From Branchiostoma floridae (Eukaryota; Chordata; Leptocardii; Amphioxiformes; Branchiostomatidae): a stretch of DNA of 64,000 nucleotides. Position numbers and translations under genes: made by a program. Shown here piece after piece: positions 5,137 to 58,200 of this stretch; position 1 is the stretch's first letter; the number at the start of each line of letters is the position of its first letter. The stretch lies in the NCBI RefSeq assembly GCF_000003815.2, contig NC_049986.1:12965876-13029875 (forward strand), given 5' to 3'. A model generated the notes under the pieces. The model saw nothing but the letters and a program-made list of their open reading frames with translations. It was not told the origin of the DNA and did not search any database.

Positions 5137-8100
5137 TCACAACCCTCCGTACAACGCCACCTTTGCCAGCGACAGCGACTCTACGGAACTCTTCACGCCC
5201 TTCTCGTACAGGATGTACAGGTGTCCGCTGTCCTCGCTCAGCATGGTCATGGCGGAGTAGCCGCTAGCCTGCGGCCAGATAGTCAGACTGGACGCCCAGG
5301 TGGTGCCGTTATCGTAGCTCCACCTCAGGGTCAGGTTTATTCCTGGATGGGGCAGAATAGAAATGTTATATTGTAAGTGGCTAATCACCAAGCAGATCCT
5401 TGGTGGTGGGCATGCAGTATCAATTGTCCATGCAGTATCTGTGGTGGCAAATGGTCCTACAGTGGCAAATGGATAGGGCTGGCCAATATATAGTGCCTGC
5501 CTACCACCAATGATCTGCTTGGAGATCAGCAAGTGGCTACATAAAACAGGAATGCGTAAATGGTGATTCTAGGAAAGGGGTATTGACCTGTAATGCTGTT
5601 ACAGTAGTACCTGAAGATACCACAAGGGGGTTAAAAATTGTGCCATGTAATTCTTTGGGACCTGAATGACTTCCTACATACCAGAATTCATACAAATCAA
5701 TATCAGAAAGATTTTGAGTTAAAACACAAACGCAACAGTAACCCAATCGTAGATAAACCTCCTTCATGGAGGTGACCAAACTTACACTGTACGTTCATCA
5801 TAATAAATTGAAACTTAAACCCATGATACTGTACTCACTCTTTGTCTTGTGTGCTGGGTTGGAGAAGAACAGCACACCGTTACTGTACCACTGACTGGCC
5901 ATTGCTCTGGGCTCGATCAGCTTCTCATCAAAGCGCAGGTAATCCAGAGGGAAAGACTCGGCGCCGTCAAAGCTGCGCATGATGACGCGGCAGTGACAGT
6001 GGTAGGTGTACTCATTCCTCGCGTTCAACAAAATCGAACCGTCCGGGAGCTCCAGCGGCTGATTGGAAGACAGACGAGTGGAAACTGTGTTTAAAGTACT
6101 CTATACTCTGTATCTATTTAAAAAATGTACAATAACATAACTGCATTCACTTCACTACAAAGAACACGTCTCCATATGCCTGACACATTTCCCATCTTGT
6201 TTTTCATGTTCTGTCCTGAAGTCCTGTCCTGGATGATACAAGAACAAAAGAAATCCTCTAAGACAAACCTGATTTTCATCAGGGGCAAAGTCTCCTGCCT
6301 TCTTCTTCTGGTCGTAGGGGATGGCCTTCCTTGTACCTCCGTAGCGCCACCTGGAGGAAAATGAAATCACTGTGTCCACTACTAGAATATTCTGACCACA
6401 ACTTACTAGTACATATGCTTCTATTTAAGTTGTTTTACTAGAATTTGTTCTTTTGTTTGTTAACAGAAAATTTGTATGAGGTCAAAATGTTGTAAATTAA
6501 AAGTCATGATATATTTTAATATGAGTGTGAGCCATGTTCCCACACCTGTTGCCATGGCAACTAAAGAGACAGTAAACACCTGTTGCCATGGTGTTACATG
6601 TGTTACTAAGGTGACAGTAAACAGGAGTTGCCATGGTGTTACATGTGTTACTATGGAGACAGTACACACCTGTTGCCATGGTGTTACGAAGAAGACAGTA
6701 CACACCTGTTGCCATGGTGTTACTATGGAGACAGTACACACCTGTTGCCATGGTCGTCGCTAAGGAGACAGTACACACCGCCGTGCAGCAGGTCTCCATG
6801 GCCACAAACTATCAGCCGACCCTTGTAGGGGTCAAGCTTTTTCTGGGGAAAGTAACAGGTAATGTCTTTGTTTGTGCCTTTATTTTTTTGCCTTAAGCCT
6901 GGTGGCATAGCTTATGATTTGTGCCAATTTGTCTAAAGCACCAAAATTTGGCACACATGTAGAGTTGAATTTACTTGGATTCTACATATGTATTAACGGT
7001 GCACACACCAATTCTTCCGCGACAGGGGTCCGAGATAGTGCGCGACAAAAATGTGACGAAAGGGTCTCGAGGGTCCGTGTTTGAGTTCAAATTTCTCATA
7101 ATCTGCTGCGAAGTGGCATTTAATACTGGCATGGCTAAAAAGCGTAAGAAGTGATGTGTTTTTGGTGCAAATTGGTTTTGGGCCCGAGGGTCACTTCCTT
7201 GTATTTCTACGCGTTGGAAGTGATTCGCCGTTGACCCAGATTTCCCGTCCATATGCGGTCTGTGAGCCGTGTTGGTATGCCTCGCGCGTCGGGTTATTGT
7301 AAAAATCTCAGTGTTACGATTTTCTTTATTTTTTGCCTGATTAATCTTAAGTGTATTCTCTTTCCGACAATATCAGTCATTTTCATGACTAAACTATAGG
7401 TGATGGGTTTATTTCCACGTCAAAATTCCCCTTTTTGTGCATACTTTTTTGCGTGAAAAAAACTTTTCTCCCCAAAAAATTATGAAAAGTAGAGAGAGTG
7501 AAGAAACTGAAACCCGGCTGTTCTTAAAGCTGGAGTGATACCCGTCATTCTCATATACGGCTTTTCTGCTTTAGATCTATTTTCTTGAAGAGACGGCCTC
7601 TCGACTTGGGGGTGCGCAGCCTCGATTTGAGACCCCAAATAAACTGGGGTGTGCACCGTTCAGTTTCTGCTCCGAATCAACTTCATGGTATTCCAGCTTA
7701 CGGCTTTCGACTGTGGAATCTGGCTTTCTGGATTCTGACTCAGCCCGGATTCCAGCTGTCCAGATTTTGTCTGGTGATAACTTTAACCTATGTGATTTGG
7801 TCTATTGTGTAAACAAACAGGTAAATACAGAATCATACTGAAACATAAACAGGTGACTGAACCAGGTGGGGAGAAATAAAAATACCTGGACGCCGTACCC
7901 AGGACCGGGGTCAAAGGTCATGGTTCCGATCTGTTCGGAGATGTTGCGAGGGTGACTCCAGGTCAGTCCGTCATCAGTACTGTTGATCAGGAACAGAGTG
8001 GACACATTGCACCTGCAAGTCATGATTGGAAAACAGCAGGAAGGGAATTAATATTTGTTCTGTTGTCTTTTACATTATACTTTTACATTGTGCAGCATGT

Positions 8101-10228
8101 TCTAATCACATGTACAGTACATGTAATATAAAACCAAGACACAAATCCAATTTTTGTTAGTCAATGGTGACTTGTGACGGTGAGATTGTAGTGGAAAGGG
8201 GACTTTATTAGCCACCAAAATCATGACTTGTTTCAACACTGTCGTCTAAGTGTCCAAATTGCTGATTCTTGTTCCACGGAAAATAACGTTAAAGTTCCAG
8301 TTGCAAGCCCCCTTAAAAAGTCCAAAACTTTTCACACAAAATTGTGAAATATGTGACCTAACAGAGTTCTTACTTGTAGTGGTGAGCACATTGAATATAC
8401 ATAACAAATATGGTGGATGTTGTCTCATCCACAAAGATGGACCCAGCGTTGATGCCGTCCGGAGATCTGTCATCCGCCACAAAGTCTGTAGGAGACCAGG
8501 TCTGACCTGAACAGGAAATGTGGGGACACAAATAGCATCAGTCCTGGACTCCTGGTCTGATATTTAAAAGGTATGATATCAAGCCCATAAAAAATGATCA
8601 TGGCTCATAGTGGCAAATGTGCCGTTGTTGCCACACTGGTGCAACAAATCCATGTGTGATTTTGTAACTCTTTTTCACAGATTAGCCAAAGACACTTTGT
8701 GGTTGTCACTCCACCGTCATGGTAGATATACTGTACACTCACTCACTCACTATAGAAATAGCCTTATAACCATATTATAGGAAAGTTCCCTTGAACTTTG
8801 AATATTTGTCTAGTGTTGAAAAATTCATTTTTCTTTTGAGTTTTGATCAAATAGCATTATACAAAGACATCTCAAGCTACATTTTAAACATTACTAAGAA
8901 ACAAGAAGAAGACGCACAAATGTATTACTATTAGAATAGTTTCAGAACCCATGTTTTAGATTAGTCATAGAAACCATGTGTACTGTATTACGATCTTTCG
9001 CATCAATATGCCTGTACTTAGCCCGATAGGGCATGAATGTGCAATAAAGGCTATTATACATTCTTCTCTATACTAACTTGTAAAGTACCTTCCCAAAGGG
9101 CACAAGGTCAGGGCAAGGCAAGTATCGAACCAAGGCCCTACAGCTTCCAAGTCAAGTGCTCCAGCCATTGCACCACACAGACCTCACTTTCAAGCCCATA
9201 GCTATTGGAAAGTGGAGCCCAAGCCTGTCCTCCCTAAATCTTGGGAGTGCTGAACTGCAGTCCCTTACAGTGGTATTCAAGCACAGTCCCTACAACACCA
9301 GAGGGCACCACTTGAAACTCTCTAGACCTCGCACTAAACTGGAAGTCCAGAAGAGGTCCTATCCTGTAAGGGTTTTGAAAGCCTGGAATGAACTCCCGGT
9401 GGATATTGTAATCCAGAACACTAAACTGCTTCAAAAACAAGATAGACAGATACATTGAAGCCATGCTTGACGGAGGAGCAACAGTGGGCTACCCGCCTTC
9501 CAGCTCCTGACCGCGGAGGCACTACAGTCTCTGTGGTTTTAGGTAAATTCAGGTAAGTAGGGGTTTTGAGGACTCAAACCTTTGACCTCTGGGTTCCAGA
9601 CTCACTAACCTTTATCAGTAGACCTCCTGATGGCTAAAAACTTGGGCCCAGCATCCCCAGAGCTGTACTTCCGGGCACCGCACAGGGCTAGCAGGCTCCC
9701 CTGGGGGGTGGAGACCAGCAGGGGGGTCCGGTAGATATCCACCTCCCCCTCACCCCCTCCACTCAACCACAGCAGCTGCTCTTCTACAACAACAGGCGAC
9801 ACCTGGAGAAAGGTAGCAGGTAGAACTTTACTTCCATGCAAAATAAGTTCAATGTTATTATGTATTTCTATTTCATATTGGGTAAATGAAATACAGTTGA
9901 TGAAAAATGGTTTGTTCAAGAACGTCCTCATTCAAACAACATTAAGTGAGTTGTTTTTATAAAGATCACGAGGTTATTTTGTGACCAAGGTACAAGTCTG
10001 ACTAAGCCGGTACACATACGTTGTTAGTCACTGTCTTGTATCGACTTCAACTTCAAGGACGTTCAGGCACTAAAACAGGGATAATCATTGATAGTCCTAC
10101 AACTTATGTATCCTTGTATCTGCACTTACCGGTTTGACATTGGAAATTAAGATGGGGGACGATGAAATAGTCGCCAGGAAGCCAAAACACAAGAACACAA
10201 CAAACATCCTGACTTCCTCTTCCGCCAT
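5137..10228 (-). CDS. NEU1: Sialidase-1 (lysosomal neuraminidase)
   Basis: Eight exons on the minus strand join in phase: 10228-10130, 9802-9610, 8506-8374, 8012-7886, 6842-6742, 6350-6269, 6058-5839 and 5342-5137 (386 aa, near the usual family length). NEU1 removes terminal sialic acids from glycoproteins and glycolipids, mainly in lysosomes. The first exon encodes a hydrophobic signal sequence (about residues 8-24). The family YRIP-type motif is YRTP (57-60) with the first catalytic Arg at 58. Four Asp boxes follow: STDKGQTW (94-101), STDDGLTW (153-160), SDDHGNRW (212-219) and SYDNGTTW (327-334). Other hallmarks are the His/Cys segment YHCHCR near 264, an Arg-Trp at 325-326 and LYEKG near the C-terminus. 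These match NEU1 better than NEU2-4. The Ile-to-Thr change in YRTP is unusual. Intron 5 begins with a minisatellite built from the exon 5 donor. Confidence 0.95.
6545..6770 (-). repeat. Minisatellite spanning the NEU1 exon 5 donor site
   Basis: About six copies of a 34-45 bp unit are centred on CCATGG at 6552, 6586, 6631, 6676, 6712 and 6748 (the last three are exactly 36 bp apart). The copy at 6748 is the true end of NEU1 exon 5, encoding SDDHGN and the donor CAG|GTGTGT. The other copies lie in the intron and most repeat the donor. Read through on the minus strand, use of a later donor gives a TAG a few codons past the normal junction. Confidence 0.9.
9065..9185 (-). mobile_element. tRNA-derived SINE fragment
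   Basis: On the minus strand there is a tRNA-like head with an A-box-like GGTGCAATGGCTGGAGC and a B-box-like GGTTCGATAC about 50 nt later. It is followed by TTTGGGAAGGTACTTTAC. A closely similar tail segment recurs near 26496, which supports a dispersed repeat. It lies in NEU1 intron 2. Confidence 0.6.
9190..9510 (+). mobile_element. LINE (CR1/jockey-like) ORF2 C-terminal fragment, frameshifted
   Basis: The translated segment [10 protein letters not shown]...[14 protein letters not shown] is the typical C-terminal end of a non-LTR retrotransposon reverse transcriptase protein. The frame shifts near 9428 into a second frame reading [13 protein letters not shown] and ending at the TGA at 9508-9510. 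It is a dead fragment in NEU1 intron 2, antisense to the gene. The exact LINE clade cannot be decided by eye. Confidence 0.7.
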
Positions 10229-12569: not shown

Positions 12570-12579
12570 CCATATTTGG
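12570..12579. promoter_or_regulatory. CArG box (candidate serum response element)
   Basis: CCATATTTGG is a perfect CC(A/T)6GG match and lies about 670 bp upstream of the IER-like start codon. Serum response factor sites drive immediate-early genes in vertebrates, so the position makes sense. A match is expected several times by chance in 64 kb, so this remains a candidate. Confidence 0.4.
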
Positions 12580-13054
12580 GGGGATTTTCCACGGACTGTG
12601 ACCAATGGTCACGAGGCGTGGTGTTTATCTTGACGTAGTTTGAATGGCGCCTTGACTACACCAGTGTGTTTCCCTTTGTTTGGCGGAGACACGTCATAGC
12701 CAGTCCCTAGGTGGTTTCACCCCAGGGGAATTCAGGGAATTCCAGCCCAATTACTCAGGACGTGCTCTCATTGGTCAGTTCAACATCATGGACTATTCCG
12801 ATAGGGATGTTGTTTTAAGTTTCAATAGAAATCATTATCATATTAAGTATTTGATGCCTTTTACATGACATTAAGTAAAAGTGTAGAATATTTATAATGT
12901 ATGAAATATATTTTGCTTTGAAATCTCCACCTTGCTTGCTATTATAATATGGTGATTCATAGTTCAACTTCCTGCACCCCCTGGAATATAGTAGTACAGA
13001 CTACATTCTCTCAGCCGTCAATCATGCCGCCAGGCGACCATATTCTCGGCTCCT

Positions 13055-13084
13055 GATTGGTCCATTGAAATAGCCATTACGTCA
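13055..13084 (+). promoter_or_regulatory. Inverted CCAAT box and CRE-like site of the IER-like gene
   Basis: GATTGG (13055-13060, an inverted CCAAT box) and TTACGTCA (13077-13084, one base from the CREB/ATF palindrome) lie 170-200 bp upstream of the start codon. Another ATTGGTC lies near 12770. CREB and CCAAT sites are common in early-response promoters. Function is inferred from motif and position only. Confidence 0.4.
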
Positions 13085-13252
13085 GTGTGGATTTGAATAA
13101 CACAGGATTTTTCCATGCAACGGTCATTCGTAGATCACGCCACGTTACTGGTAGGGTGTGATCCCCATTCAAGCACCGCTACAAGCCAAAAACTCGGTGT
13201 TTTGATCCATTTGTTGCAGTTTCTGTTCCTCAAAAGTATCAGCAAGGACAAG

Positions 13253-19672: not shown

Positions 19673-19881
19673 TACTCTCCAAGCAGAGGTTCGGCTTCGG
19701 CTGTGTTTTGACTTTATTTTGGCGTTTTTGTCGAGCTTTCTATTTGTATGCATTCTTTATGTCCGCCATTATTTCTTTATGTGCGACATAGAGAAAACAG
19801 CTGCAGTACAAAATAGAAAGCTCGACGAAAAAATGCCCATATGTTTAAAACAGCCGGAGCCGAACCTCTGCTTGGAGAATA
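19673..19881. mobile_element. Fold-back MITE, TACTCTCCAAGCAGAGG family
   Basis: A 209 bp element with terminal inverted repeats. The left end TACTCTCCAAGCAGAGGTTC is mirrored by GAACCTCTGCTTGGAGAATA at the right, and the inner arms (GCTTTCTATTTGT / AAAATAGAAAGC) pair as well. The TIR core is shared with elements at 35496 and 55110. No clear 9-bp target duplication remains, so this copy may be older or rearranged. Confidence 0.8.
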
Positions 19882-21659: not shown

Positions 21660-21715
21660 AACACTAATGGAGATCGAAATAAACAAACAAACAAACAAAC
21701 AAATAAACAAAGGTC
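21660..21715 (+). mobile_element. Retroposon 3' tail with (AAAC)n
   Basis: GGAGATCGAAATAAAC followed by several AAAC units is a typical retroposon end. The body upstream cannot be delimited by eye. Confidence 0.4.
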
Positions 21716-21799
21716 AGCGAAATCACATCCTTAATACGAAGTTTTCACGAAATCGTCTTCCGGGAGGGACGTTAAACAGCCTCATTACTCATACTTTGG

Positions 21800-22250
21800 G
21801 TACCTACTGGCTGCAAAATACACCAGATTATTATTATCATTATTATTATTTGTATTGGAATGTGAGTTATATAGTGATATACGTAATTCTTTTATTAATG
21901 CCCTGAATTTTGATACACGAGCTAAACAGTTAGTAAAAGATGAGCTTTTTGTATACATAATGAAATCATCTGACAACATTGTACTGCAAAAACTCTGTGA
22001 ATTCATATACACTTGTTTCAAGAAGAGAAAAGAGACATGTAAATTGTAGAATAGTATAGCATTACATATTTGACTATTTTGTAAACGATAGATGTACTTA
22101 TAGTGTAGCATAGCCTTAGTTGTTCTGTCTCTCCCACTGCCACTGTAAAGATTCTTTACAGCAAAGGTTTATGTAACTACTGCATTTAGCCCATATGGGC
22201 AAGGTCATGCAAATAAAGATCATTGTCATTGTCATTGTCATTATTAATTC
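21800..22250 (+). mobile_element. LINE 3'-end fragment (ORF2 C-terminus plus tail)
   Basis: An open frame up to the stop at 22047-22049 encodes CELYSDIRNSF...FVYIMKSSDN..LQKLCEFIYTCFKKR, the usual C-terminal Cys/aromatic segment of non-LTR retrotransposon proteins. It is followed by a short 3' UTR with TTAGCCCATATGGGC and CAAATAAAGATCATTGTC, then a (CATTGT)n tail. A related TTAGCCCGATAGGGC...CAATAAAGG sequence lies near 9016. The 5' part is missing. Confidence 0.65.
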
Positions 22251-25833: not shown

Positions 25834-28800
25834 ATGCCCAACACCATGATGACGTGGCCCCCTGCGGAGGTTGACCTGTGGCTCTCCCTCCCCGACAGCA
25901 TCCTTCTACACGTCTTCTCCTTCTTAAACTCTAAAGAAGTCGCCAAGGCTGGCATCACGTCCAAGAAATGGCACCGTGTATCGCAAGACGATCTTCTGTG
26001 GAAGGATCTGTTGTACTCGGAGTTTTCCGTGTCCAGAACGATACCCATGGCTCCGTTTAAATCGTCCTGGTGGTCAGAGTTCCGCAGACTACATTATCTG
26101 TCGCCGGTGGCTCTGACAGAGACGCTGAAGGAACACACGGACCAGGTTTTACACGTCAGCTTCTCCCACAATGGGAACATGTTCGCTTCAAGCTCCAAGG
26201 ACGGTTTTATTAAGGTGAGACAGTATTGGAGATAAAAACTAGTAATGAATTATGAGTTGAATGTGTGAATGAATAATTTGTAGCTTGCTTAAACTCAACT
26301 GACATTCCTGTTAGTCTGTTGTTTTTGAAAGGGGAAGGAAGACTGGATAAACAGATTTCACATGTTGTTAATTTTTGGCATGACTTAATTGCAGGTAAAA
26401 AAATGTTTTGATGCCTGCAAACCTCTCTCTGTGACAGTGTGACTTGAGCTTGTCTCCAGGATCTATGTTGTATCTAACTTAGGGAGAAGAGATCTTGTGT
26501 CCTTGGGGAAGGCACTTTACATATGTTTCCTCACATATACCAATCACCAGTTTAGGGTTGTCCTCTTGGATGGGATGTAAAGCGTAAGGTCTTGTGTTTG
26601 AAAAGAGGCACATCTTGATGTTCATGCCCTGTTCATGTTACTTGAAGTGGCCTTTAGGTCTTGTTTTGTTATTACAATGGGTTAAAGAGAAAGTAGTGTA
26701 AGAAGTATCTTGTGGCCTGCCCTGTACAGGTGTGGACGGTATCCTGGCCATGTCAGGTGAAGTACAGTGCAGACATGAAGAAGCACAAGTGGAAGTACAC
26801 CCAGTTCTCCCAGTTCAACAGTCTGGACACACTCCTGCTGGTGTCAGGGGTGCACTTTGGGCCACACAGCACCTCTGGGGAGATCGCTGTCTTCTCTTTA
26901 CAAGGTACATGTCTTTAGGTTTTCTTATACATGTATGTCTTACTCTAAGGTCGTTGTTCTCAATGTTGTTTCTTGACTTTTTTTTTTTACAATGATAAGA
27001 AGACCATATACCGTATGTACAAAATGCAATTGGATGTGTTTACCATATGCAATTGGATTTGTTTACCATATGCTAGGCATCCTTACTGTAACTACCGTAA
27101 ATGCAGAAACATTGGCGGTGGTTTAATGCGAATTTAAAACCACCGCAAACATTTTTTCATGGCATTAAGAGACTACAGTGCATGGTGCTACCGCGAAATT
27201 AAAACCACAGCAAAAAGTCAATTTTCCCACTACCGCAGAATTAGATCTCCGCAAACTTACATGCATTTACAGTATATTGTGAAGTGTATACTTTATTTGC
27301 TACATTCCTGACTGTGCATGCACATTTTATTTTCACAGTACTTGATGAAGAAATGTTGCCTTTCGTGAAAAATTTTGGGTGCCTTCAAATTTTACAATGA
27401 TAAGGGCTAACAGTCACACTGCTGTTTATAGAAATCTAAACATAGAGACCATAGCACGGATTCACCATATAGGTATTTGCTTATCATATGAGTCATCAAG
27501 TAGAAATAGATGCTTTAAAGATGTGAAATTTCAATCCCAAGTTAGGCTAACTTTTTATTCAATTGTTGTGTGACTTGAATGTCTCTATGTTGTGTTTTCG
27601 GAAAGACGAGTTCATGTTACAAGCGCGGGTGTTGAACAAGCCGTACGACATTTTCGGCACGTGGCTGGATGATTCGTACCTGCTGTCAGGGAACCTGCAC
27701 TGGCTGGGAGACTCCACATGTTCTGTACTGTGGCTGAACAAGGCCACACAGGAGGTGGACTCAGAACAGGTCAGGAGGTCTTCTGTTGTCTCAGATGTAA
27801 ATATGGCATTTATCTGGTAATCCAGCAAACAACACTACATCTGTGTATCAATCCATGATGCAGTTAAGTGTTCCAATAAGGGACAGAAAGTACTCTTTGA
27901 ATGCATGAATATCAAATCTTTTTAGATAGTGTTCTGAACACGGAAGTCTCTCAAGTTTTCAGTTTTGGCAGTATTACCAATACCAGTATTTCTATTCAGC
28001 AAGAAGTCATGGGAAGGTCTTTTGGTCCTGCTTCATATATGACTGTATCATTCTTCCCAGGTGTCAGTTGTGATGCGGCTCTTCAGATTCCGTAATTTCA
28101 ACTCCAGCACGATACGTATGGTAACAGTTGCCGACTGCAGCCGTTTCCTTACCGATGTGGCCTCGACAGCAAACACTCACAGGCCTGTGGGCCCCTGCCA
28201 GCCCATATCGGAGGAGGAGTCACCTGGTATGAACACTGCGGCTAGCCAATCAGAGGAAAGTGCAATAACACATCGGTGTGGAACCAGTGATGGGGACATG
28301 GGGACAGAATGTACCTGTGGAGGGGGGGTGCTTAACACAGACTTTGGTGGTGACAGTAACACACATAAAGGAAGCGGTGATGGTACGGCTACTGAAAGCG
28401 ATACAGACAATAAGGATGACAGTGTCATTCCACTCGCTAGAAAACAATCAAATGTTAACTTAGCTGCAAATACTGCAAGCCAAGAACAATCCCACAATGC
28501 AATGCAAGATGATGATGATACTCACGATGGCAGTGAAAATGTTGGGCCAAATGTTTGGGAACAGTACCGCGAGCGAACAGTCGGAGTAGCTGGGCCTTCC
28601 CATGAGGCAACTGCAGGGCCTTCCCATGATGCATCTGCAGGGCCTTCCCATGAGGCAACTGCAGGGCCTTCCCATGATTCAGCTGCAGGGCCTTCCCAAC
28701 ATGCCATGGGCCCTGACGACCTGTTCTATAACTACTACTACGATGAAGAGAGTGATGAGATGTGGGTGGATTATGACTACCTCCCTCATCAGGAGCTCCT

Positions 28801-31800
28801 GCCGCGGGCTTCGTACTACCCATCTCCGCAGAAGGAGAGTCCGACACAGAGAACGAAAGAAGGTGCGAGAAGTCAGAACAGCTTCTCTAGTGGTGCTAGC
28901 CACAGCGGGGAACACAGCGAGCTTCTGGCCTCGTACGATAACATCGATGTGGCGTACAGAGATCACGGCGGGCGACCGTCGGCAAGCGATAAGTACCTCA
29001 TCTTCACAACAGGCAGTGAGACTTACACACCACACCAGATAGGTAGGGTTCATCTTCAGTAATGATCTTCAACTACAAATATGATTGTTTTACTGATTTA
29101 TCTATTTGTATGTTAGTATGAGTCCAGCATTCTTGACAAGCTGCATAATTGATAGCAACAAATCAAATCCTCAGTATGGAACGTCGTTGTTGTCGACAAA
29201 AACCTAGGAGAATTTTCCGAGTGCATGGAGTCTATGAGCTACATGCATATATGGTATTTGTCTGACTTGTTTGATCTCAAGACTTACTGATCATGAATAC
29301 AAGGCAAACACTCTACCTACTTGGCCATTGCACCAGTATCCTTAGTTTGATGTAAACTTTTCTTTAACTTCTCATTGCTTGTTTGTCTGTAGGTATAAAG
29401 AGGATCCGCCCCCAGCAGAAGGTGATGAAGGACCCTAAGACCCTGCTGCAGGAGAACGCGCTGCACGGCTTCCACGGGATGGACGGACAGGACCTGGTGG
29501 AGTTCGACAGCGTGGATCAGATCATCGAGCTTCACGGACACATCATCGGCATGGGCCTGTCTCCTGACCACAGGTAAGGGTGCTGTAAACTAGATCATCG
29601 AGCTACACGGACACATCATCGGCATGGGGCTGTCTCCTGACCACAGGTAAGGGTGCTGTAAACTAGATCATCGAGTTACATGGTCACATCATCGGCATGG
29701 GCCTGTCTCCTGACCACAGGTAAGGGTGCTGTAAACTAGATCATCGAGCTACACGGACACATCATCGGCATGGGGCTGTCCCCTGACCACAGGTAAGGGT
29801 GCTGTAAACTAGATCATCGAGCTACATGGACACATCATCGGCATGGGGCTGTCTCCTGACCACAGGTAAGGGTGCTGTAAACTAGATCATCGAGCTACAC
29901 GGACACATCATCGGCATGGGGCTGTCTCCTGACCACAGGTAAGGGTGCTGTAAACTAGATCATCGAGCTACACGGACACATCATCGGCATGGGGCTGTCT
30001 CCTGACCACAGGTAAGGGTGCTGTAAACTAGTAATCTCCAAGCAGATTCCTCCGGTGGCATTAAAACAGTAACATAAGCTGGGGAAGGAATTAGCCAGCA
30101 AAGGAGGATAATTGGCCACCATGTTTTAATGCCACCGAAGGAATCTGCTTGGAGATTAGTAAACTAGATCATCGAGCTACACGGTCACATCATCGGCATG
30201 GGGCTGTCTCCTGACAACAGGTAAGGGTGCTGTAAACTAGATCATCGAGCTACACGGACACATCATCGGAATGGGTCTGTCTCCTGACCACAGGTAAGGG
30301 TGCTGTAAACTAGATCATCGAGCTACACGGACACATCATCGGCATGGGCCTGTCTCCTGACCACAGGTAAGGGTGCTGTAAACTAGATCATTGAGCTACA
30401 CGGACACATCATCGGCATGGGCCTGTCTCCTGACCACAGGTAAGGGTGCTGTAAACTAGATCATCGAGCTACACGGACACATCATCGGCATGGGGCTGTC
30501 TCCTGACCACAGGTAAGGGTGCTGTAAACTAGATCATCGAGTTACACGGACACATCATCGGCATGGGGCTGTCTCCTGACCACAGGTTAGTTGCCTATAC
30601 ATCATAACAAAGGGGTCAACCTCCCTGATGAGGAGATACATCGGGCCTAGTGCCCATCTCCACTTCTAAGCCCTAGCCACACATAAGTGCAAGCACTACA
30701 GCAGGGGGCTACTCCACTGGTAGTGGAGTGTAGTTACATGTAGCCTCTATACTCTTCCTCTTAGCAGAGAAAGAAGTACGTACTATTATAAGAGTCTTTG
30801 GTGCAAGTTAGGGCACTGCAAATTGTTAAACATTCATATCAATGTGATTTTGCCCTCAGATACCTGTTTGTAAACAGTCGTTCCTGGCCGGAGGGTTACA
30901 CGATACGAGAACCGTTAGAGCCTCCACCAATCGCAGAGCAGATAGAGATGCACGTGTTCGACTTAACCACGATGAGTCGCGTGGACAGAATATACACCAG
31001 CCACAAGGCAAAGACTCCCAACGACGAATGTTTCTTCATCTTCTTGGATGTTGCCAACGAATTTGTTGCAAGGTTTGTTTGATTTTGTACTTGTTTTTCG
31101 TTGGCAAGAGTCGAAGACCTAGAGTAGTGTTAGTGTGGCATAGCATGTTTGGAACGGCTGCATGTGTGTGGAAAGAAAATGCATGATTTTAAAAGTGTTT
31201 TAAATCTCTAAATGTTTGCTGTGGTTTTATTGTGGTTTCTTTGGTGGCCTCTTCCCATAAAATCATGACACGGTGAATGTATGATTTGTACTTCTATGGA
31301 AAAGCAGATATTTTCAAACTTACTGAAAAACCTCCTTTCCCCTCCCATAAAATCAAGTCACAATGAAAATAAATGAATTTACAGTATGCTGTACATGTTG
31401 TACAAATTTTGTAGCATATTATACAGACATTGCTACCCTATTTTGAGGTATTACTGTTCAGATAACATTGGCATATTAGATGAATATAATGCTAGACATA
31501 TTTGGAAAAAAATCCCTTTGTAATTTCTCTTTAAGACTTCTAAAAGTTGTGAATTTGATATTTCTACTTGTTGTAATCTTGTAAGTCAAGTTTTTATGTA
31601 TATAATTATCATTTCTTGAGTTCAGTTGTAACTCATTCATTGTGTCTCATTTTCCCCATCTCTAACAGTGGAGCAGAAGACCACAACGGCTACATCTGGG
31701 ACCGCCATTATAACACGCTCCTGGCGAAACTTCCACACACGGATGTTGTGAACTCCGTCGCCTTTAACCCCCAGGATCCCGAGATGCTCATCACCGCGAG

Positions 31801-31995: not shown

Positions 31996-32153
31996 TAATC
32001 TTCAAGCAGATCCTACTGTAGCATAAGATAGTATCAAAAGCTGGCAGAGGAGTGAAGCTGGCTTAGGAGTGTGTATGCAACTGGAGGAGACAGACCTCCT
32101 CTGGCTGGCTTTGATACTATCTTATATGCCATCGGGAATCTGCTTGGAGTTTA
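31996..32153. mobile_element. Fold-back MITE, TAATCTYCAAGCAGAT family
   Basis: A 158 bp element. The left end TAATCTTCAAGCAGATCC is mirrored by GGAATCTGCTTGGAGTTTA, and inner arms GATAGTATCAAAAGC / GGCTTTGATACTATC pair. Flanking 9-mers CAAATATTG and CTAAAATTG agree at seven of nine positions, a decayed target duplication. It lies in the FBXW5 3' UTR. Confidence 0.8.
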
Positions 32154-34252: not shown

Positions 34253-37200
34253 TTAGACATACACATTTTCCATGACGTTTCTCTTGCTGAAGGTGCTGTT
34301 CTGCATGTTGGCATCGGTGGGTTCCGCAGGCATGTTGACATACAGGGGTTCCTCTGGGGCGGGGTCCCCGTGACCTGCCGCCTCCTGCCAGCGATTGGTG
34401 GGCACATTCTCCGCGTTCCCAAAAGCTGGGTTGGTGAACACAAACTCTCGTGGTCCAAGTTCTTCTCTCTATAAAATAAATATAAAAAGTCATTATTGTG
34501 AATTCAATCTGGGATGTTGTAATCAACATTGAAAGAAAATACACATACAGAATATATTTATTTAGAAGCACGAAAAAACAATAAAAGATGACGAGAAAGT
34601 CAATTTTTGCAAGCTAACGCACAATACATTCATTTTCAATGTCACAGATGTTCTATTGTGTCTTTGGGGTTCTGAATATAAGGACATTGAATACATTTTG
34701 AAGATTGTTATACACAACTTGAGGTTGAATAGCTTGACTACATCCACACACAAAACACGAGTATTGTATTGTTGTGCCTTGCATTATATGTACATATATA
34801 TTGGTGCAAATTAATCAGTTAGAAAAAGACAAACCTCGAAGGGATCATCCTGAACTTCTGGCTCATCTTGATGTTCACGACACTTGATCACCAGCACAAT
34901 GATAACCAGTATGATGAGGAGGAGAAGAGCGCCCCCTACTCCTCCGGCAATGTAGTACACCGTGTTGGTCGGTGTAACTTTCTTAGTTTCGACGGTTGCT
35001 GTTGTGGTGTTTTGAAGTTGAGCAGTTGCAATTGGTGTCATTATTTGTGTAGTTGATGATGTTGATGTCATCGGAAGTTGTGTAGTTGCTTTTGATGTCG
35101 TCAGACGTTGTGTAGTTGCTTTTGACGTCGTCAGACGTTGTGTAGTTGCTTTTGATGTCATTGGATGTTGTGTAGTTGCTCTAGATGTCGTCAGTAGTTG
35201 TGGAGTCTGACTTTGTGTGCTGGAAGGTTCCACAGTAGGTGGCCTTGGAGATGACGGTAACTCAACTGCAAAGGGTAATAGAATGTGTTACGTTGTCGTT
35301 ATTTGATTGTTACATCCAACCAAACTACCTACCAGCCCAACCCAACCAACCGAACACACACACCCCTCACCAACCAATTACCCACATATCAACCAACCAA
35401 AAACCCACACACCGACCGACTGGCCTACCTACCAACAGACCAACCATGATAAAAGCACTCTACTTGACAGCGGTATGACTGGTACACAAAGATATTACTC
35501 TCCAAGCAGAGGCTGATGGGGAAATCGTAACGTTTTTTTCTTATATGCTATCTTTTTCTGTCGGCTATCCCCAACAACGACAGAAAAAGACGGCATATAA
35601 AAAAAAGATCACGATTTTCCCCAGCAACCTCTGCTTGGAGAGTACAAAGATATAGCCAGTCGACATGACTGCAGAATGTACTCACTGATTTCCCTCACTC
35701 TTTCCACCAGAAGGTCCCGGATGCTGTTGATAACAGAATAAGTACCGACCTGGAAGACCCTGTCTGTATCCCCGGCCACTGCTTCTAGTTGGTCCCTATT
35801 CACGCTGGGACCCACTCCAATGGAAAAGGCAATTATGCCTGAAAATATGGATGAAAAAAAATTAGAGAAACATGAATTAGGCATTAAGAAAGACAGGTCA
35901 ACAAAGGTCCATGTAGCAACGGTATGTAGACATCTAACGGTTTAAATGAAATCATGCTTTCTAGCAAATAAGAACTACTCTGAAAAAGTTACTTTAAATA
36001 GAATATTCCTCTTGCTCAACATTTGATACAATATGTAGGTTTTCCCGGGAAGAATTCTTACCTGATGCTCGTAAGGCATCAATAGCTGGGGCTAAGACAG
36101 TAGTAGGGTTGTCGTGGGCCGATCCGTCTGTCATTAACACCGCAATTCTGGGTATCCCCTGCGATAGTGGACGCGCTCCTTTGGCTTCGGTAAAGCTTGT
36201 GTTGACCAGGTAGTTGATGACTTGTCCCAATAAGGTTCCGCCTCCTCTGTGATATAAAACATTGACAGAGATATACTTATACTTATCATCAGAATAGAAT
36301 AAAATAAATAAATAGATAAGTAAGTATTTTCCGTCAACCATGATTTTGAATCGTCCCAATACTGTACAAAATAAGATGTATTGATCAACCCTGTACCCTA
36401 TCTTATAATCACCTTCCTTAAGCTTATTTCTCCCTTTTCTTTTTAACCCTTATAATTCCCCCTCCCCATGTCGTCTACCAGTCTCACCTCTGTGGGATAT
36501 TCCCGATGGCTTGCTTCAAAGACGCCTTGTCCGAGTAACCGTCTAGCGGGAATTCCTCCGTAAAAAAGGAACTAAACTGAACTACACCTACCAAGGTGAA
36601 ATAAAAGAGAACGTTTCTTTAGCGTTTACTGGAATATTGTATTCTATTTGGGTACTTTCTGGACTTTCACTTTATGGAAATTATTTGCTATGTTTCTGTG
36701 TACTCTAAATGTCATCTCATATTCATTACAAGCCTGATTAAATCTCGCTTATAGCAGCCCGCCAAACATCCGCTGGCTCCCTAGTTACAGCCCTGGACAG
36801 CGGAGTTTGTGTTACACAGCCTAATTCATTACTGAACACTCAAAACTACTTAATACCAAACAGTTATCTGTGATGTTACTTACCTACGCGTGTGAAGTCC
36901 GCAGCTATGTCGAACGCATCCACAACTTGACTGATGAAAGATTTGGCCCTAACAAAGTCGTCAGCGCTGATGCTACCGGACCCGTCTAGCACGAACATGA
37001 TGTCTCCGGCATCGCCAGAAGCTAGGAGCAGAAAAACAAGTCACGGAAAACTTCTCCTATGGCTCTAATTATCTTCATGAGAAATGCAGATATTGTTTTG
37101 GGTGTGTCTATGTGTTTGTATGTCCGGATTTCTGTTGTCAGCATAAATGAAGAACCTCTTTATATTTGGTATTTGGGTAGGTGTTGCGAAGCCAAGTCGA

Positions 37201-43200: not shown

Positions 43201-46200
43201 TGTATGTAAAGTAGACAGACAACGTTGCATTTGCACAGTGAAGATTTATCTAAAGACTGTCCTTTATTATTAGCGAGTAGACATGTAGGATGTGTTTTTG
43301 TCAGAATATTCATGTTGTATAGGTCATGCTAGTTCACCTTTATCCGTTGAGTAACCTATATTCAATGTTTTCAAAGCAGGGTATTCAGGATACCAAGCAG
43401 AAAGCCATTGTTTTCAAACGGCAGTATTTCGACATGGAATCCCTGGTTTTAAAAAGAACGGATATAGGTTCCCCCGCGGAAAAAGGAGAAGCGTTAGACA
43501 GGGAGATGAAAATGTGTTTGCTTTTAGATCGCCTTTCTAAATATATATTTATGACTTGGAATTATGCGAATTGACTTCATGCTTTCAGAAATTCTTTCTC
43601 TATATATGTATTTACGACTCTATATTCCGCAAAGTGACTGTCAACCTCTTAAAAGTTTTGTGAAAGAGTGTGTGCAAGTGTGCAGATAAAGCAAAATATG
43701 CCTTTAAAGGGGTAACAGCTTTTAGAACTGCTGCCTTAATGTATCTTTACGATGTCGACCTCTGCGAAGTGACTGTCTAGCTGGTGTAAAAGCCCCCGTC
43801 ATATACAAGTGGGCTGATGAAGCAAAATTGACATTGTGAACGATGGCAGCTTTAGAATTCCTTTCAAAATGTATATTTACGACGTGTTGGATGGTGTGTA
43901 ATGGCCGTCTGATCGCTGAAATACTTAGAAGAATGTGTTGGAAGCAGATGAATTGAAGCCAAGTTCACTGTATGGCGAAATAGTTTTAGATTTCCTTTCA
44001 AAATATATATTTACGACGCGTTGGATTCTGTGTAATGCTAATGGCCATCTCATACTTTGCAACCGAGAATAAACGTTAGAAGCAGATGAATTGAAGCAAA
44101 GTGTTCACTGAATGGGAAAATAGTTTTTAGATTTCCTTTCAAAATATATATTTACGACGTGCTGGATTCTGTGTAATAGTCGTCTGATCGTTGAAATATT
44201 CTGCAACCGAGAATGAATGTCAGAAGCAGATGAATTGAAGCAAAGCGTTCACTGAATAGGAAAATAGTTTTAGATTTCCTCAAAATCTATCTTTACGATC
44301 TTGATTCTGTCTATCTGGGAATTGAAATTGTTTACTTTATGGAATAGTGTAATGGGGTAGATAAAGCTAAATGTGTGTAAAAATTGATAATAGCCTTCAG
44401 AATTGCACCCTAAATACATATTTTACAACTGAGTATTGTGCTGATTATAGCTGATAAAAGTGCCAGCCATATGCATACGACTTGATGTAAGTGTATAAAT
44501 GAAGTCAAAATTGCTTCAGATGAGTGCATATGTTTTAGGCGTCGTTTAAAATCTATGAAATAACAATTTTTTACTGTTAACGTTAACATTGTCCGTTCTA
44601 TAGCACGATATGAAGTGGGTGTATAAAGCTGAATGTGGCCTGAAAGTGGTTATAATGGCTGCGCGCGGAAAAAAAACGCCAGAGTAATGCAGAGCAAAAA
44701 TGAACAGTACATCACCGAGTTAGTATTACATCCCTGACGCCTATCTCCGTGTGTCTATATATTTCTAACACATCTCAGAATGCAGCTATTGCTATGGCGA
44801 TCCGTTCAAACTGACCTAACAAACTTCTGAAGGGCGCAAAATGAAATGTAGTTGTCGCCACTGACGCCTCTTCTTCAATGTGAAATAGAAAGAAGGCAAA
44901 CGTATTTGTGTTTTGGTAATAGCTGTGTATATATCTCAAACCTATCTACCCATTTCTCCCCCATTCAGGGAACTTTGCACAAAGCTAATAATGTCTGTGA
45001 AATATTGCCAATTTACGGGCTCACTATCGGGAGGATTTAAGAAATGCCCCGTCTTGCACTCAAGTAAGTCTTACTCAAAGACGTAAGGTTGATAAGATAC
45101 AGTCAAGATGTCACAACATCGTTCCAACTAATGTTATTGATTTAAGAAACAAGAAAAGGACACTGTATTGATATATAGGAGGATACTGTCACAAAAGGAA
45201 AATGGGCCTATCGCTAGACACGACGCCGAGGGTTTTTGAAGTTTAGATAACGGTGCCTATAGCCGTTCTTTCTCCAACGGGTTGACGTGGGCGTTCATTT
45301 TAACATTTACGGCTTGTGAATGTACGGTGTTAACACAAATCACATAAGGGTCAACAAGAAACTCACAAAACAGAAGGCAAGGGCATAAAATTGATAACGT
45401 TGCCTGGATGACCGATAAAGTTAGAGCCTGTGCTCTATATATCATAGAAGGATCAACTTTGATTTTACGAGGACGTTCAGAGATTTGTAGCTTCAAAACG
45501 GCTGTTAGTTTGAACGCTGATTCCTATCATGATAAGTGGACTGGTAGTATATTGTTTGTGCTTTGATGAATGTCAGAGAGACAGGTCAGGAAATGGGTTC
45601 TTAGTCTGGTATCCAGCCGTATTATAGCTCCTGAGTCTCTTCTGTCCTCTCCGCACATACTTTTTAGGAGAGGAGATGAGGACAGAAGAGACCCGGGAGC
45701 TATAATACAGCTGGATACCAGGCTAATGGTTTCTGCAATATTGTTAACTCAGAGATTTGCACCTTACTGTTTGCTCCGTAGGGTGGAACTTTATTTTCGC
45801 ATCGTTCTTTTATATTGTTCTTTAAGGGCACGTTAACTGTGAAGGCCGTTTCAAACCTTCCGGCGTTTCTGCGTATCGTGAACATCATATGTTGCCCTTG
45901 CAATAAAAATCATGACCCCACGTTAGGGCGATAACACGAAAGCCGGCAAGAGCAAATGTGTATATCCACGAATCGCATCATTCACCGAAAGCGTAAGAGA
46001 TTAACGATTTAGCCATTCGATCCTTGTTAATCTGTAAGTGGAAACTCATCAAATTATATACATGTGTATCTATAACAACGGAGCTGGGTATCAAGGCGGG
46101 CATGCACTTGTGCAATTTGCAAAGGTTCCTTTTTCCAGAGGCTGTTACAAACTGCGTCAGCAGACTGCGTAAGAAGAAGCACGAACGGAGGCTTTTTGCG

Positions 46201-52200: not shown

Positions 52201-55200
52201 GAATGCAATTCATGATAACTCGGTTCTTTTGATTTTGCTTCTAGAAGGGGTGGGGCTAGTTACGTTGGATGATACTGGCTTTGCTTCTTTCTTGTTTTCT
52301 TGTGATGACATCACAGTGAATGTTATGTTTTGTTAGATTTCAATACAAATAATGATAAGCATAAATGTGCACGTTCATGTATATATTTTATCTTTTCATT
52401 GCATTCCTTTCCATAAGGACGCGTAATTCAAATCCTTACATCCGTTAAGTTCGCCTTTTCATCACCCAAGTTCTGCTGCAAGTCCTCCTGGCATACCCGC
52501 CGAGCATGTTAGTGTTTTACAGATGTTACAACATCCTCCGGTGATCAAAGGTCTTTACAAATGATACATGTCCTTATGGTGAGGCATTACTTATACGGCA
52601 GTATCAGAGGGAGGACTTCCTGGAATTCGAAATGTCAAACTTTTACTACCATTTCCGGAGGGAGTAACTGTAAGAGCGCGCATCGTATGCAGAAGATGGA
52701 GGGTCAAGCCGTAAGTAAACAGCAAATCAAAACGTAATGCCAGTTTTGGTTTGAGGAAAATGCCATCTACAGAGCGGAAGGAAGAAGCTTTACCTTGAGC
52801 CCTAGGCTAACATATACCATAGGATTTGACGTAGTAGGTTTTAACCTTTTATATAGCTAGTGGCTTAAAAGTCTCTGACAAATTATGACAAGCTTTGTGA
52901 TATATGAGAGCGTTCTTTCTGTAGATTTCACCCGCCAGGATACATAAAAAGGTATGTTTTATCTCTTCTCAGAAAACCTCTGGAAAATGACGGGTCATCT
53001 AAAAATGTTACGTAAAGCCCTTGAGAGTTGCATTGAGAGGCTGTACGTATTGCTGAGCATGATAGCTGAAGTGCCCAGATGAAACAAGCAGCAAATGCTA
53101 TCTACTTGTCTGGCGCTAGTGACGTTCATCTTTATTTAGAAACTGTCATGAAGACGGTCGCGAAAGCCTCTCCACATAGATAGCTTCTAATGTAAGTAGA
53201 CAGCCGTGTTACCTAAGCTTTTCCTCAAGCGTGTGGAGCCAGACTCTAAAGCGGCGCCGCTACTTTACGCAGCCGTCAAATAACTGTTAAGTGGGTCTAA
53301 GGATTAAGGCATATATAGTCCATTTCACTGCATAATATGTTTCATGGATAAACCCTTATGAATTCGAAGCGCCAGACGGTGAACAACCGAAAAGGCTCCT
53401 CTTGAGTTAACATCTTATGGTTTAGTTGTAATTTCAATCTTCAATTGTCCTTTGTTGGCTCTTAAGATGAAAGAGTTGACTCAAGTAGACAATACTAGGT
53501 ATGGAGACTTTGACAGGAAAACCATTATATGGTTTTGACAAATTCTTTATTCCCTACTTTGTTTCACTTTGCACTAACAACCACTTGTATACATTTCTAT
53601 GGTTTATTTTTGGATGTATTGTTCAGACCACACCGCTGAAATCTGAATAACCATACAGTTTTTACCACAGCCACAGGCAAACGTAAATGATAGATCACAT
53701 TGGCTGTGGTCCAGTCAGTAGGAGACATTATCCCGCCCGCCGTGCGGCAACAGGAGGATGAATCTTACTTAACCAGCTACGATAAAACAAACCTCACGGT
53801 AGGAACGTCTTTTGGGACGTATTATCAGATTTGTGGTATGCATAAGTCATGGGTCCCACAGTTTATAACTTAAACACATGGCTTNNNNNNNNNNNNNNNN
53901 NNNNNNNNNNNNNNNNNNNNNNNNNNNNNNNNNNNNNNNNNNNNNNNNNNNNNNNNNNNNNNNNNNNNNNNNNNNNNNNNNNNNNNNNNNNNNNNNNNNN
54001 NNNNNNNNNNNNNNNNNNNNNNNNNNNNNNNNNNNNNNNNNNNNNNNNNNNNNNNNNNNNNNNNNNNNNNNNNNNNNNNNNNNNNNNNNNNNNNNNNNNN
54101 NNNNNNNNNNNNNNNNNNNNNNNNNNNNNNNNNNNNNNNNNNNNNNNNNNNNNNNNNNNNNNNNNNNNNNNNNNNNNNNNNNNNNAACCGTTAAAGTATC
54201 AGCGAGACCTAAGGTGATCTGTTTGGAATTTATATATATATATATACAAGAATAGGAAGTATCATATTGTATTTTGAAGTTACTTCTAAGTTTCAAAGAT
54301 GACAATAAAAAAGTTTGTCATACCTTCTCCTCCCCCTGGCTTGAGGACCGGTACCCAGAATTCCTCCGCCAGCGGTGTTCCTGACGACTCGGACGAACTC
54401 TGGTGAGACTTGATGGACGTCCGGCTGGGGGAGATGGTCACCGGGCCCCGGGCCTTCTGGGAACGGGAACATGTCTGTTAGTTAGGGCCTTCTGGGAACG
54501 GGAACAGGTCTGTTAGTTAGGGACTTCTGGGAACGGGAACAGGTCTGTTAGTTAGGGCCTTCTGGGAACGGGAACAGGTCTGTTAGTTAGGGCCTTCTGG
54601 GAACGGGAACAGGTCTGTTATAGTAGGGCCTTCTGGGAACGGGAACAGGTCTATTAGCTAAGGCCTTCTGGGAACGGGAACAGGTCTATTAGATAAGGCC
54701 TTCTGGGAACGGGAACAGGTCTGTTAGTTAGGGCCTTCTGGCAACGGGAACAGGTCTGTTATAGTAGGGCCTTATGGGAACGGGAACAGGTCTATTAGAT
54801 AAGGCCTTCTGGGAACGGGAACAGGTCTGTTAGCTAGGGCCTTCTGGTAACGGGAACAGGTCTATTAGATAAGGCCTTCTGGGAACGGGAACAGGTCTGT
54901 TAGCTAGGGCCTTCTGGGAACGGGAACAGGTCTGTTAGTTAGGGCTTTCTGGGAAAAATTACGCCTGTTAGTTAGGGCATTCTGGGAAGGGGAAGAGGCC
55001 TGTTAGTTTAGGCCTTTTGGTAACGGGAAAAGACTTGTAAGTTAGAGCATTCTGGGAAGAGGCCTGTTACTTAGGACATTCTGGTAACGGGAACAGACCT
55101 GTTAGTTAGTACTCTCCAAGCAGAGGCTGATGGGGAAAATCGTAACCTTTTATATGAGCTGATAAAAGAAAAGGTTCCGATTTTCCCCGTCAACCTCTGC

Positions 55201-58200
55201 TTAGAGACTAGTTAATTAGGGCATTCTGGGAATAGGTAGAAGTCTGTGAGGGCATTCTGGGAACGAGATGGAAATAGAGCCTTCTGAAATGTGGATTCTT
55301 AAAAATCTATGGAACACTTTTAAAAAAACAAAGTTAGACTCTAAAATCCATATTTTTCTCTTGTGTCTAACTTGAGATTGTTTGAAAACGCTATCTATTA
55401 CCGTGGCCAATTCGGCCATAATACCTTTATTGAACAACAGTTGTATAAGATGCAACGTATGGTAACCTCTATTACTTAACAGCGGTTCTGTTTTGAATTG
55501 AAACCTTCACGGTGCTCAACTGCACTGCGGCGTCATTCTCAACAGTCAAGTTGACGGTTGGATTATTTATTAACTAAAAGCGCTGCAGCCGCGACAAGCT
55601 GTTATTCCAACCCCTGTCCTTCTCCTGTCTGAAGTTTGCCGACACGTTCTCACTCACGTGAAGGTCACCAAAGCCGTCACCGCCAACGCCGGGAAGAAAT
55701 GAGGACGTGGCTCTGCGTGGGCGCGCGGTCAGACATTAGGACAGCAGGAAATTGTGCGGGGGACGCCTGGATAAAACACCGGGCCATTGAGCACAAATTA
55801 AACCATAGAAAATGTGACGCTTATCAAACGACATTGACTATTGGTTAATATTTCACTTGTCTAGAACTCACCGTCGCCACCAAAGGTTCTTGATTTTAAA
55901 GACGAAGGAGTAACCAAGCTTACAAACGATTTAAAACGAATGTATCTTCAGAAACGTGGCTAAGGTAGCTCGTTCTGTTGATTAGGAAACTTTTCTTCAC
56001 AGCAATTAGGAAACAAGGCGACCAATCTATATAAGCTCCACGCGCCCGCTTTGATTGAATTTGAAAAAGTAAGGCCTAATTAGGAGTCAACTTTCAGTAG
56101 TCGCAACTTTCACAGATACACGAACTTGGGCTTAGGTATTACTAGTGTTTGCAGCATGTTGATTCACGGCATACCAATTCAAAGACAAATGTTTGCAGAC
56201 TCACCACATGAGAGAAGGTGAACTTGTTTGTATATCATTTACTGGCTTTTGAAAAGGTGAGTCATTCGTTCAAAGTCTCAAATGTTTTTGGCTCTGACAA
56301 TGACATTGTGTATACCTGTCATTGTCAGGGCATTCATTCGCAAGGGGTGATTTATAACTACAGTAGACATGGGGACAATCGGGTAAGGTTGGTATCACAG
56401 TTTGTTTATCAATGGTTGATCTTGTGTTGGTTCATACACAGAATATACTAGCTACAAGTAGACAATGTGCCAAGCCACATCTTACTGAGGCACACTGAAC
56501 CAGACATACATACATGTACTATGTTCTGTCTGATACAACTTCTTTTGTTTGCTCATCCGTCATTTGTTAGCGCGCTCTCATGAGTCTAAGAGCGTCCTGA
56601 GGATGCTTTCCATCAAGTCATGTGTGTTCTTACTATATTCAAAAAAAGTCAAAGCAAAATAAACCCCATATGTATGACTATATATGTACTTTTCATATAA
56701 CTCGGAGCTGCCTTTTCACAAGTCCTGTGCATGATATCTAGTACCTTCAATGCACAGTTTTGGAAGAGATAAACCAGTAAAGACAGCTTCAAAAAGTACA
56801 TGTATTTTTCATTTAAAAAAGTTGTATACTGTCGTCAAAGTACATGTATCATACATACATCAAGGCAACGGTTACGGTTTGATAGAAATCCTAGATTTAG
56901 CTTCTCACATCACGTTGCAATTCTGTAGTGGCTTTTACGGTCTCCAAACACGCATTGGGATCAATGGAGTTTCTTGATGGACACTGTATTGTTCCCGAAG
57001 GTAGTACTCTCACCACGGGGGCAATTCTTTCCAGGCGAATACCAACTTTATGTTAGTGCTTCATATATTTTCTTAACAATGAAGGTCAAGGGCTTTACTA
57101 TTGCTATCTTATATAAAACATTGTTCCCAATAGCGAAATCAATCTCAACGTTGAATAAAATCCAAGAGTTGGATCTGCAGTTTACAGCTTTTTCTCGTCA
57201 CGACGTTTACGACTTTCCCATAGACAGGCCTGATATCGCTGTAGGGATGTCCCTGTAGCTCAACTGGTAGCGGCCTCACAGTTGCATTAGCTCCTGGTTC
57301 CAATTAGTTGGTAACTGTGAGACCCTGGTTCAATTCTGGATAGGTTCCTCTGACGGGGCTGCACCCGTCTTTCGGAAGGGACGTATAATGAGGGTCCCGT
57401 GATCGAGGATGCGCCTTGAGAAAGTTAAAAGGGAAGGGCTAGCAGCCCTCTGTAAAACATGCCCTACAGAAACAGCAAGAAAATTTGCTGCCCTATGTCA
57501 CTATGCGGCTACTAGGCACTACAAGTGCTTAACGAAAAGAAAAATTGCTGAACGAAAAGAAAAACTGCTATCACTATACGAGGGGGGTTCAATAAGTTCT
57601 TTGCCTCACCAAGAAATAACAAGCACAACTCAGATTTTCAGGCACAACTTCATAGTATGAAGTCTTTTATCAATATCCTCCAAATTACAAATCATTGGAG
57701 TCATTACTTTCCAGGCATTCGTTTTTTCTAAATTAGAAGGTAAGTGGGGAGAAAAAGAAGGGTGAAGTGTGATCAGACAATTTGACCTCACACCTCAGGT
57801 TGCAGATCAATTGTCCACCTTTTTTTTTCGTTATCCCTTACCTAACGTTACTGGGTGTCGCCTGCAACATGATGATCACAATAATTTGAATTTTGGTACA
57901 CACTTATATAAGACTTTATACATGTACGTGGGGTTATCAATAAGTCCCCGACTTTACCGAGAAAAAATAAGCACAGCTCAGATTTCGAAGCATAGATGTC
58001 AAGTATAAAGTCTTATATAAATATGTACCAAAATTCAAATTAGTGTGATCATTACTTTGCAGGCGACACCCAGTAACGTTAGGTGAGGGAGAAGGAAAAA
58101 AACGTGGACAATTGACCTGACCTGAGTGTGTGGGTCAATTTGCGCTGCTGGAAGTTAGAAACCCAATTCTTTTTGCTTGAAATAGGAAGAGAATCATTAT

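What the first reader, a model, noticed from the sequence alone, without database searches (positions are those of the whole stretch)
6545..55262. Three unrelated genes carry minisatellites whose unit contains the splice junction
NEU1 (donor, about 36 bp, six copies), FBXW5 (donor, 73 bp, thirteen copies) and the synaptotagmin (acceptor, 35 bp, about 19 copies) each have a tandem array that starts in the exon edge and runs into the intron, copying the splice site itself. Three in 64 kb is far more than chance placement would give. I recall exon/intron-junction minisatellites being reported at an amphioxus Adh gene, but cannot verify it here. The shared pattern suggests a mechanism acting at splice junctions.
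Basis: partly seen in the sequence, partly recalled or inferred. Interest (0 to 1): 0.85.

Follow-up and report, generated by a model that had tools for sequence, protein, structure and literature searches.

The report
Amphioxus splice-junction minisatellites ("mirages")
Three amphioxus-like genes in this stretch carry repeat arrays that copy the edge of an exon together with its splice site; the kind was already known in amphioxus as "mirages", and what is added here is a count suggesting that splice sites are favoured in such arrays and a sign that the non-coding copies were once coding.

Summary
TRF finds all three arrays, and each unit contains the splice junction: NEU1 donor, FBXW5 donor (13 copies of 73 bp), synaptotagmin acceptor (about 20 copies of 35 bp; acceptor inferred). 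Such arrays are a published amphioxus feature, "mirages" (Adh3, TnC, globins, PGBD5), so the kind is not new. A genome-wide test still supports a bias: triples of the donor word CAGGTAAG outnumber those of its one-base neighbour CAGGAAAG 605 to 62, though the single words are nearly equally common (27,256 and 25,094). Of 17 loci fetched from the donor list, 13 look like junction arrays (9 with homology support, 4 by open frame), 2 are in-frame coding repeats, 2 unclear. New here: in 15 arrays the intronic copies differ from the exon copy by 42 synonymous and 25 non-synonymous codon variants (about 28% synonymous expected), which suggests descent from, or exchange with, the coding copy. NEU1 and L033 do not show this. 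The NEU1 array fills half of an intron that human NEU1 lacks.

The parts
6742..6842 (-). NEU1 exon whose last about 36 nt are the exon copy of the repeat
   Evidence: protein collinear with sialidase-1 across the junction
6541..6741 (-). About five intronic copies of the NEU1 exon end, each starting GTGTGT/GTGTTT-like; first half of a 391-nt intron (6741-6351)
29393..29573 (+).
29574..30590 (+). 12 intronic copies of the FBXW5 exon end, each followed by a donor; the 18-nt intron spacer is identical in the 12 units that carry it
   Evidence: copies differ from the exon by 9 synonymous and 1 non-synonymous codon variants
30032..30158 (.). Hairpin MITE-like element (ends TAATCTCCAAGCAG) inserted in the FBXW5 array, flanked by the 9-bp direct repeat GTAAACTAG
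   Evidence: flanking repeat read by eye
54324..54456 (-). Probable synaptotagmin linker exon; acceptor CCCAG|AAGGCCC; its first 7 nt belong to the repeat unit (inferred, no homology)
   Evidence: no Pfam match
54450..55262 (-). About 20 copies of a 35-bp unit with branch-point-like CTAAC, pyrimidine tract, AG and AAGGCCC; 176-bp higher-order repeat; more degenerate far from the exon
55110..55210 (.). Hairpin MITE-like element of the same end family inserted in the synaptotagmin array; flanks GTTAGTTAG / GTTAATTAG
   Evidence: flanks read by eye

Best explanation
These are amphioxus 'mirages': minisatellites seeded by a tandem duplication whose breakpoints lie on either side of, or right at, an exon-intron boundary, so that each new copy carries the splice site. 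Shown: the anatomy, and that other genes of this genome have it. Inferred: splicing uses the exon-proximal site, so the mRNA stays normal and the extra copies stay in the intron; copies then multiply and homogenise by unequal exchange, block duplication or conversion, and the coding copy takes part. That would explain why intronic copies carry more synonymous variants than neutral change would give, and why junction arrays stay recognisable and over-represented. No function is needed. A side effect is raw material for new introns, and the NEU1 intron is a candidate.
For: Anatomy. Genome-wide triples: CAGGTAAG 605 (reversed word 1), CAGGTGAG 1105 (reversed 12); controls CAGGAAAG 62 (reversed 28), AGCAGTGA 129 (reversed 130). 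Singles: 27,256 CAGGTAAG, 25,094 CAGGAAAG: triple/single 2.2% against 0.25%. Of the 17 loci listed and fetched, 9 have homology for the exon at the array: donors L028 dynein (PDB 2.1e-6), L029 dynein, L032 TPR, L034 TMEM237, L040 ephrin, L044 trypsin (Pfam), L035 cysteine-rich, L037 ALDH (PDB 3e-9), and L030, an acceptor array of a dynein-like gene on the other strand; the Pfam matches of L030, L032, L035 and L040 lie below the curated cut-offs. Four more by open frame (L031, L033, L039, L041). Codon test: 15 arrays, 42 synonymous and 25 non-synonymous variants, P 3.5e-9 at 28% expected, 6e-7 at 33%; the nine with homology 24:12, P 1.6e-6; the seven phase-2 arrays 25:13, P 1.4e-6. Variants not shared by all copies, first nine arrays: 24:10, P 2.6e-7. 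Third codon position 27 of 41. In phase-2 arrays a GTAA donor reads AGG TAA, so those copies cannot be translated in frame where they stand. Multi-unit blocks recur in L035 and synaptotagmin (176 bp). Normal splicing at mirages is stated in PMC3087553 (passages).
Against: NEU1 copies carry a 1-nt deletion and were dropped by the codon script; L033 gives 4 synonymous and 8 non-synonymous, EphR-like L035 4 and 5, L041 1 and 2. No general gradient with distance from the exon: 7 of 12 arrays lower far away, 5 higher, so growth from the exon end is not supported. In the local sample donor-like units were not clearly enriched (C1: 5 of 68 against 3.1 expected). Of 17 donor-word loci, 2 (L036, L042) are in-frame coding repeats rather than junctions and 2 (L038, L043) unclear. 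L028 and L044 have units of 36 and 42 bp and open read-through, so their copies might be translated. Variants within one array are not fully independent. Control words differ widely (1 to 130 triples).
Confidence: 0.72

Rival explanations
1. Pure coincidence: minisatellites are so dense that some overlap junctions, and splicing tolerates them.
For: Arrays cover about 5% of the window and of a 200-kb sample; uniform placement puts 3 of about 60 junctions in arrays; weak local donor enrichment.
Against: The donor word is tandemly repeated 9 times more often than a nearly equally common one-base neighbour; CAGGTGAG shows 1105 against 12 for its reverse.
Confidence: 0.15
2. A mutational mechanism acts at splice junctions themselves (for example transcription- or R-loop-linked slippage, or donor-consensus microhomology guiding template switching).
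For: The enrichment of donor words; in NEU1 the exon-internal GGTGTG and the intron sequence after the last copy, GGTGTG, share the same letters.
Against: No test here separates this from exchange with a coding copy or from an exon-edge composition effect; an exon-type control word (CTGGAGAA) did not complete.
Confidence: 0.25
3. The redundant splice sites are functional (robustness, regulated splicing or alternative exons).
For: Most copies keep intact GT or AG.
Against: In phase-2 arrays a GTAA donor that is read through meets a stop; 73 and 35 bp are not multiples of three; for the words whose arrays I counted, matches per array are similar for the donor (about 100 rows, about 17 arrays) and a control (62 rows, 12 arrays), which does not suggest special retention of donors.
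Confidence: 0.07
4. Assembly artefact.
For: The assembly has a run of N near the synaptotagmin array; tandem arrays are hard to assemble, and PMC3902484 reports different copy numbers in two versions of the lancelet sequence.
Against: Copies differ from each other and two arrays carry a transposon-like insert; PMC3902484 says that re-examined and new reads confirmed the original PGBD5 sequence (passages).
Confidence: 0.03

Closest known systems
Amphioxus "mirages" (Adh3, TnC, globins BflGb6/BflGb9, PGBD5)
   Same: Minisatellite-like tandem duplication of an exon-intron boundary, donor or acceptor side, in Branchiostoma; many copies carry AG/GT signals
   Different: Other genes (NEU1, FBXW5, synaptotagmin); a genome-wide word count and the synonymous bias of intronic copies are added here
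Intron gain by tandem duplication of AG/GT proto-splice sites (Rogers 1989, as cited in PMC3087553)
   Same: NEU1 intron starts with tandem copies of exon sequence and is absent at that codon in human NEU1
   Different: Gain against loss is undecided without outgroups; only the donor half of the intron is repeat-derived
Ordinary hypervariable minisatellites (recalled)
   Same: Unit length, homogenisation, block duplication
   Different: One copy is under coding selection, and it seems to exchange with the others

Membership tests
Amphioxus mirages | Tandem repeat spans an exon-intron boundary | tested here: met
   for NEU1 (homology across the junction); FBXW5 by open frame; synaptotagmin acceptor inferred, no homology for its exon
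Amphioxus mirages | Repeat units contain AG/GT splice signals | tested here: met
Amphioxus mirages | Host is a cephalochordate | tested here: inconclusive
Amphioxus mirages | Regular splicing of the mRNA is unaffected | not testable with these tools
   No transcripts held
Amphioxus mirages | Length instability between haplotypes or tissues | not testable with these tools
   One assembly held
Intron gained by tandem duplication (NEU1) | Intron absent from the orthologue at that position | tested here: met
   Human c.623 and c.754 lie 131 bp apart in genome and in cDNA (table in PMC4143216, passages), so codons 208-252 share one exon; the amphioxus intron splits the codon before the Trp that aligns where the paper's D234, W240 and G243 fall
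Intron gained by tandem duplication (NEU1) | Gain rather than loss shown by outgroups | not tested
   No outgroup gene structures at hand

The most novel reading that the evidence does not exclude
Exon edges in amphioxus act as the coding member of a minisatellite: sequence passes between the coding copy and non-coding intronic copies, so the arrays keep a record of past synonymous alleles of the exon and could feed variants back into it; the same process makes new introns.
Probability: 0.4. Interest if true: 0.7.

Novelty: new member of a known kind. Interest (0 to 1): 0.52.

Why it matters
If junction arrays are as common as the word counts suggest, amphioxus offers a natural system for watching splice-site choice among near-identical competing sites and for catching introns as they form. 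If the synonymous bias holds in a larger set, coding exons exchange sequence with non-coding repeats, which would make minisatellite turnover a force on protein-coding sequence.

Tried and rejected
Polar growth from the exon end: not supported as general (7 of 12 arrays against 5). Interior copies as translated cassette exons: rejected for phase-2 arrays (stop codon, frame); open for L028 and L044. MITE preference for arrays: 2 of 6 elements in the window sit in arrays (P 0.03), 0 of 13 in C1; 2 of 19 overall is not remarkable. RNA families in the window at gathering thresholds: none. Local donor-score test: weak. Acceptor word TTTTGCAG and exon-type word CTGGAGAA triple searches: not completed. 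A family search (PF00069) planned as exon anchor: not completed. Codon test: the first version anchored L033 on a wrong copy; one search used nine arrays (28 synonymous, 11 not) and dropped NEU1 (frame broken) and L045 (junction not found); one search is the fuller set of 15 arrays, with L033 anchored anew, and its ratio is weaker (42:25). Copies matching fewer than 14 bases were dropped: TPR 6 of 61, dynein L029 1 of 10, EphR-like 4 of 26, L041 1 of 11. On re-checking I reclassified L030 (acceptor array on the other strand), L036 and L042 (coding repeats), L028 and L041 (exon found).

Full report
Observation. The unit differs in make-up. NEU1: exon sequence only, about 36 bp; the donor of each copy is the exon's own GTGTGTAC. 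FBXW5: 55 nt of exon end plus 18 nt of intron. Synaptotagmin: 7 nt of exon plus a whole 3' splice site, including a CTAAC branch-point-like motif (motif recalled, not from a call). Homology confirms the NEU1 junction. The FBXW5 junction is collinear by open frame only. The synaptotagmin acceptor, and the link of its exon to the C2 domain 6 kb away, are inferred.

Chance. Minisatellites of period 10 or more cover 4.95% of the window (17 arrays) and 5.36% of a 200-kb sample of contig C1 (74 arrays). Under uniform placement three junctions inside arrays is expected for about 60 junctions; I did not annotate every junction of the window. In C1 I read 13 of the 74 arrays, chosen by eye for splice-like units and some others, and judged 2 to be junction arrays. 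So the window is at most moderately rich.

Genome-wide word test. Patterns asked for three exact copies of an 8-mer with 10-40 bases between. Matches: CAGGTAAG 605, its reverse 1; CAGGTGAG 1105, reverse 12; AGCAGTGA 129, reverse 130; CAGGAAAG 62, reverse 28. Single counts: CAGGTAAG 27,256 and reverse 17,430; CAGGAAAG 25,094 and reverse 16,587. The triple/single ratio is 2.2% for the donor and 0.25% for its one-base neighbour, a factor of 9.0. Matches count units, not arrays: the 62 CAGGAAAG rows, all listed, form 12 arrays; only about 100 of the 605 CAGGTAAG rows were listed (C1 to C3), and these fall in 17 loci, against 2 CAGGAAAG arrays on the same stretch. Singles for AGCAGTGA and CAGGTGAG were only scaled from the 264-kb sample. 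AGCAGTGA was chosen because it was frequent in that sample, which one array there had inflated.

What the donor-word arrays are. I fetched all 17 listed loci. Nine have homology for the exon at the array. Donor side: L028 dynein heavy chain (PDB E 2.1e-6), L029 dynein (Pfam 7.6e-11), L032 TPR (6.6e-4), L034 TMEM237 (1.9e-24), L040 ephrin (6.2e-5), L044 trypsin (2.5e-8), L035 cysteine-rich, NCD3G/ephrin-receptor-like (6.6e-4), L037 aldehyde dehydrogenase (PDB 3e-9; no Pfam hit). Acceptor side on the other strand: L030, dynein stalk (4.5e-4). L030, L032, L035 and L040 are below Pfam's curated cut-offs. Four more have an open exon-like frame: L031, L033, L039, L041. L036 and L042, of one sequence family, are repeats inside an open frame; L038 and L043 are unclear. 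Further loci: L047 PDCD2_C (1.6e-9), L046 and L048 exon-like, L049 an acceptor array, L045 a minus-strand exon, the last four by eye. The usual unit is the last 20-55 nt of the exon plus a few to about 20 nt of the intron.

Evolution of the copies. In 15 arrays the intronic copies differ from the exon copy by 42 synonymous and 25 non-synonymous codon variants; about 28% synonymous was expected (transition/transversion ratio 3, computed on the first nine arrays), P 3.5e-9, or 6e-7 if 33% is expected. The nine arrays with homology give 24:12, the seven phase-2 arrays 25:13, all without FBXW5 33:24 (P 2.2e-6). In the first nine arrays, variants not shared by all copies were 24:10 (P 2.6e-7) and third codon positions held 27 of 41 variants. 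In phase-2 arrays read-through of a GTAA donor gives AGG TAA, so those copies cannot be coding where they stand. The likely reading is that copies descend from, or convert with, the coding copy. Against it: NEU1 copies share a 1-nt deletion, L033 gives 4:8, L035 4:5, and there is no general gradient with distance.

NEU1 intron. Human NEU1 codons 208-252 lie in one exon: c.623 and c.754 are 131 bp apart in both genome and cDNA coordinates in a table of PMC4143216 (passages). The amphioxus intron splits the codon before the tryptophan aligned to W240 (alignment with the 8du5 chain; numbering from D234, W240 and G243 named in the paper). About 200 of its 391 nt are exon-derived copies. This is what the model in PMC3087553 predicts for a gained intron; loss in vertebrates is not excluded.

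Literature. PMC3087553 (abstract and passages) and PMC3902484 (passages) describe mirages in Adh3, TnC, globins and PGBD5, with somatic instability at Adh3 and normal splicing. The original Adh paper was not held. In the listings of seven searches of this library I saw no genome-wide count and no report of the synonymous bias; most subscription papers are not in it.

Noticed in passing
window 5386-5524, 19677-19877, 30036-30154, 32000-32149, 35500-35640, 55114-55206: A hairpin MITE-like family with CTCCAAGCAGA ends, 6 in the window and 13 in 200 kb of C1; two sit inside junction arrays with 9-bp flanking repeats.
   Followed up: partly
window 28592-28698: In-frame 24-bp coding repeat (GPSHEATA-like) in a long open frame before the FBXW5 array exon.
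   Followed up: no
window 43851-44298: 141-bp unit, 3.2 copies, of unknown context.
   Followed up: no
L032 (TPR gene): More than 50 donor copies in one intron, the largest junction array among the loci fetched.
   Followed up: partly
L028, L029, L030: Three of the 17 donor-word loci are dynein heavy chain-like exons, all within C1:221200-245500; possibly one large gene with several junction arrays.
   Followed up: no
G000:C1:51061-5866506: 14 CAGGTGAG arrays in the first 6 Mb of contig C1 (the listing stopped there); not compared with other regions.
   Followed up: no
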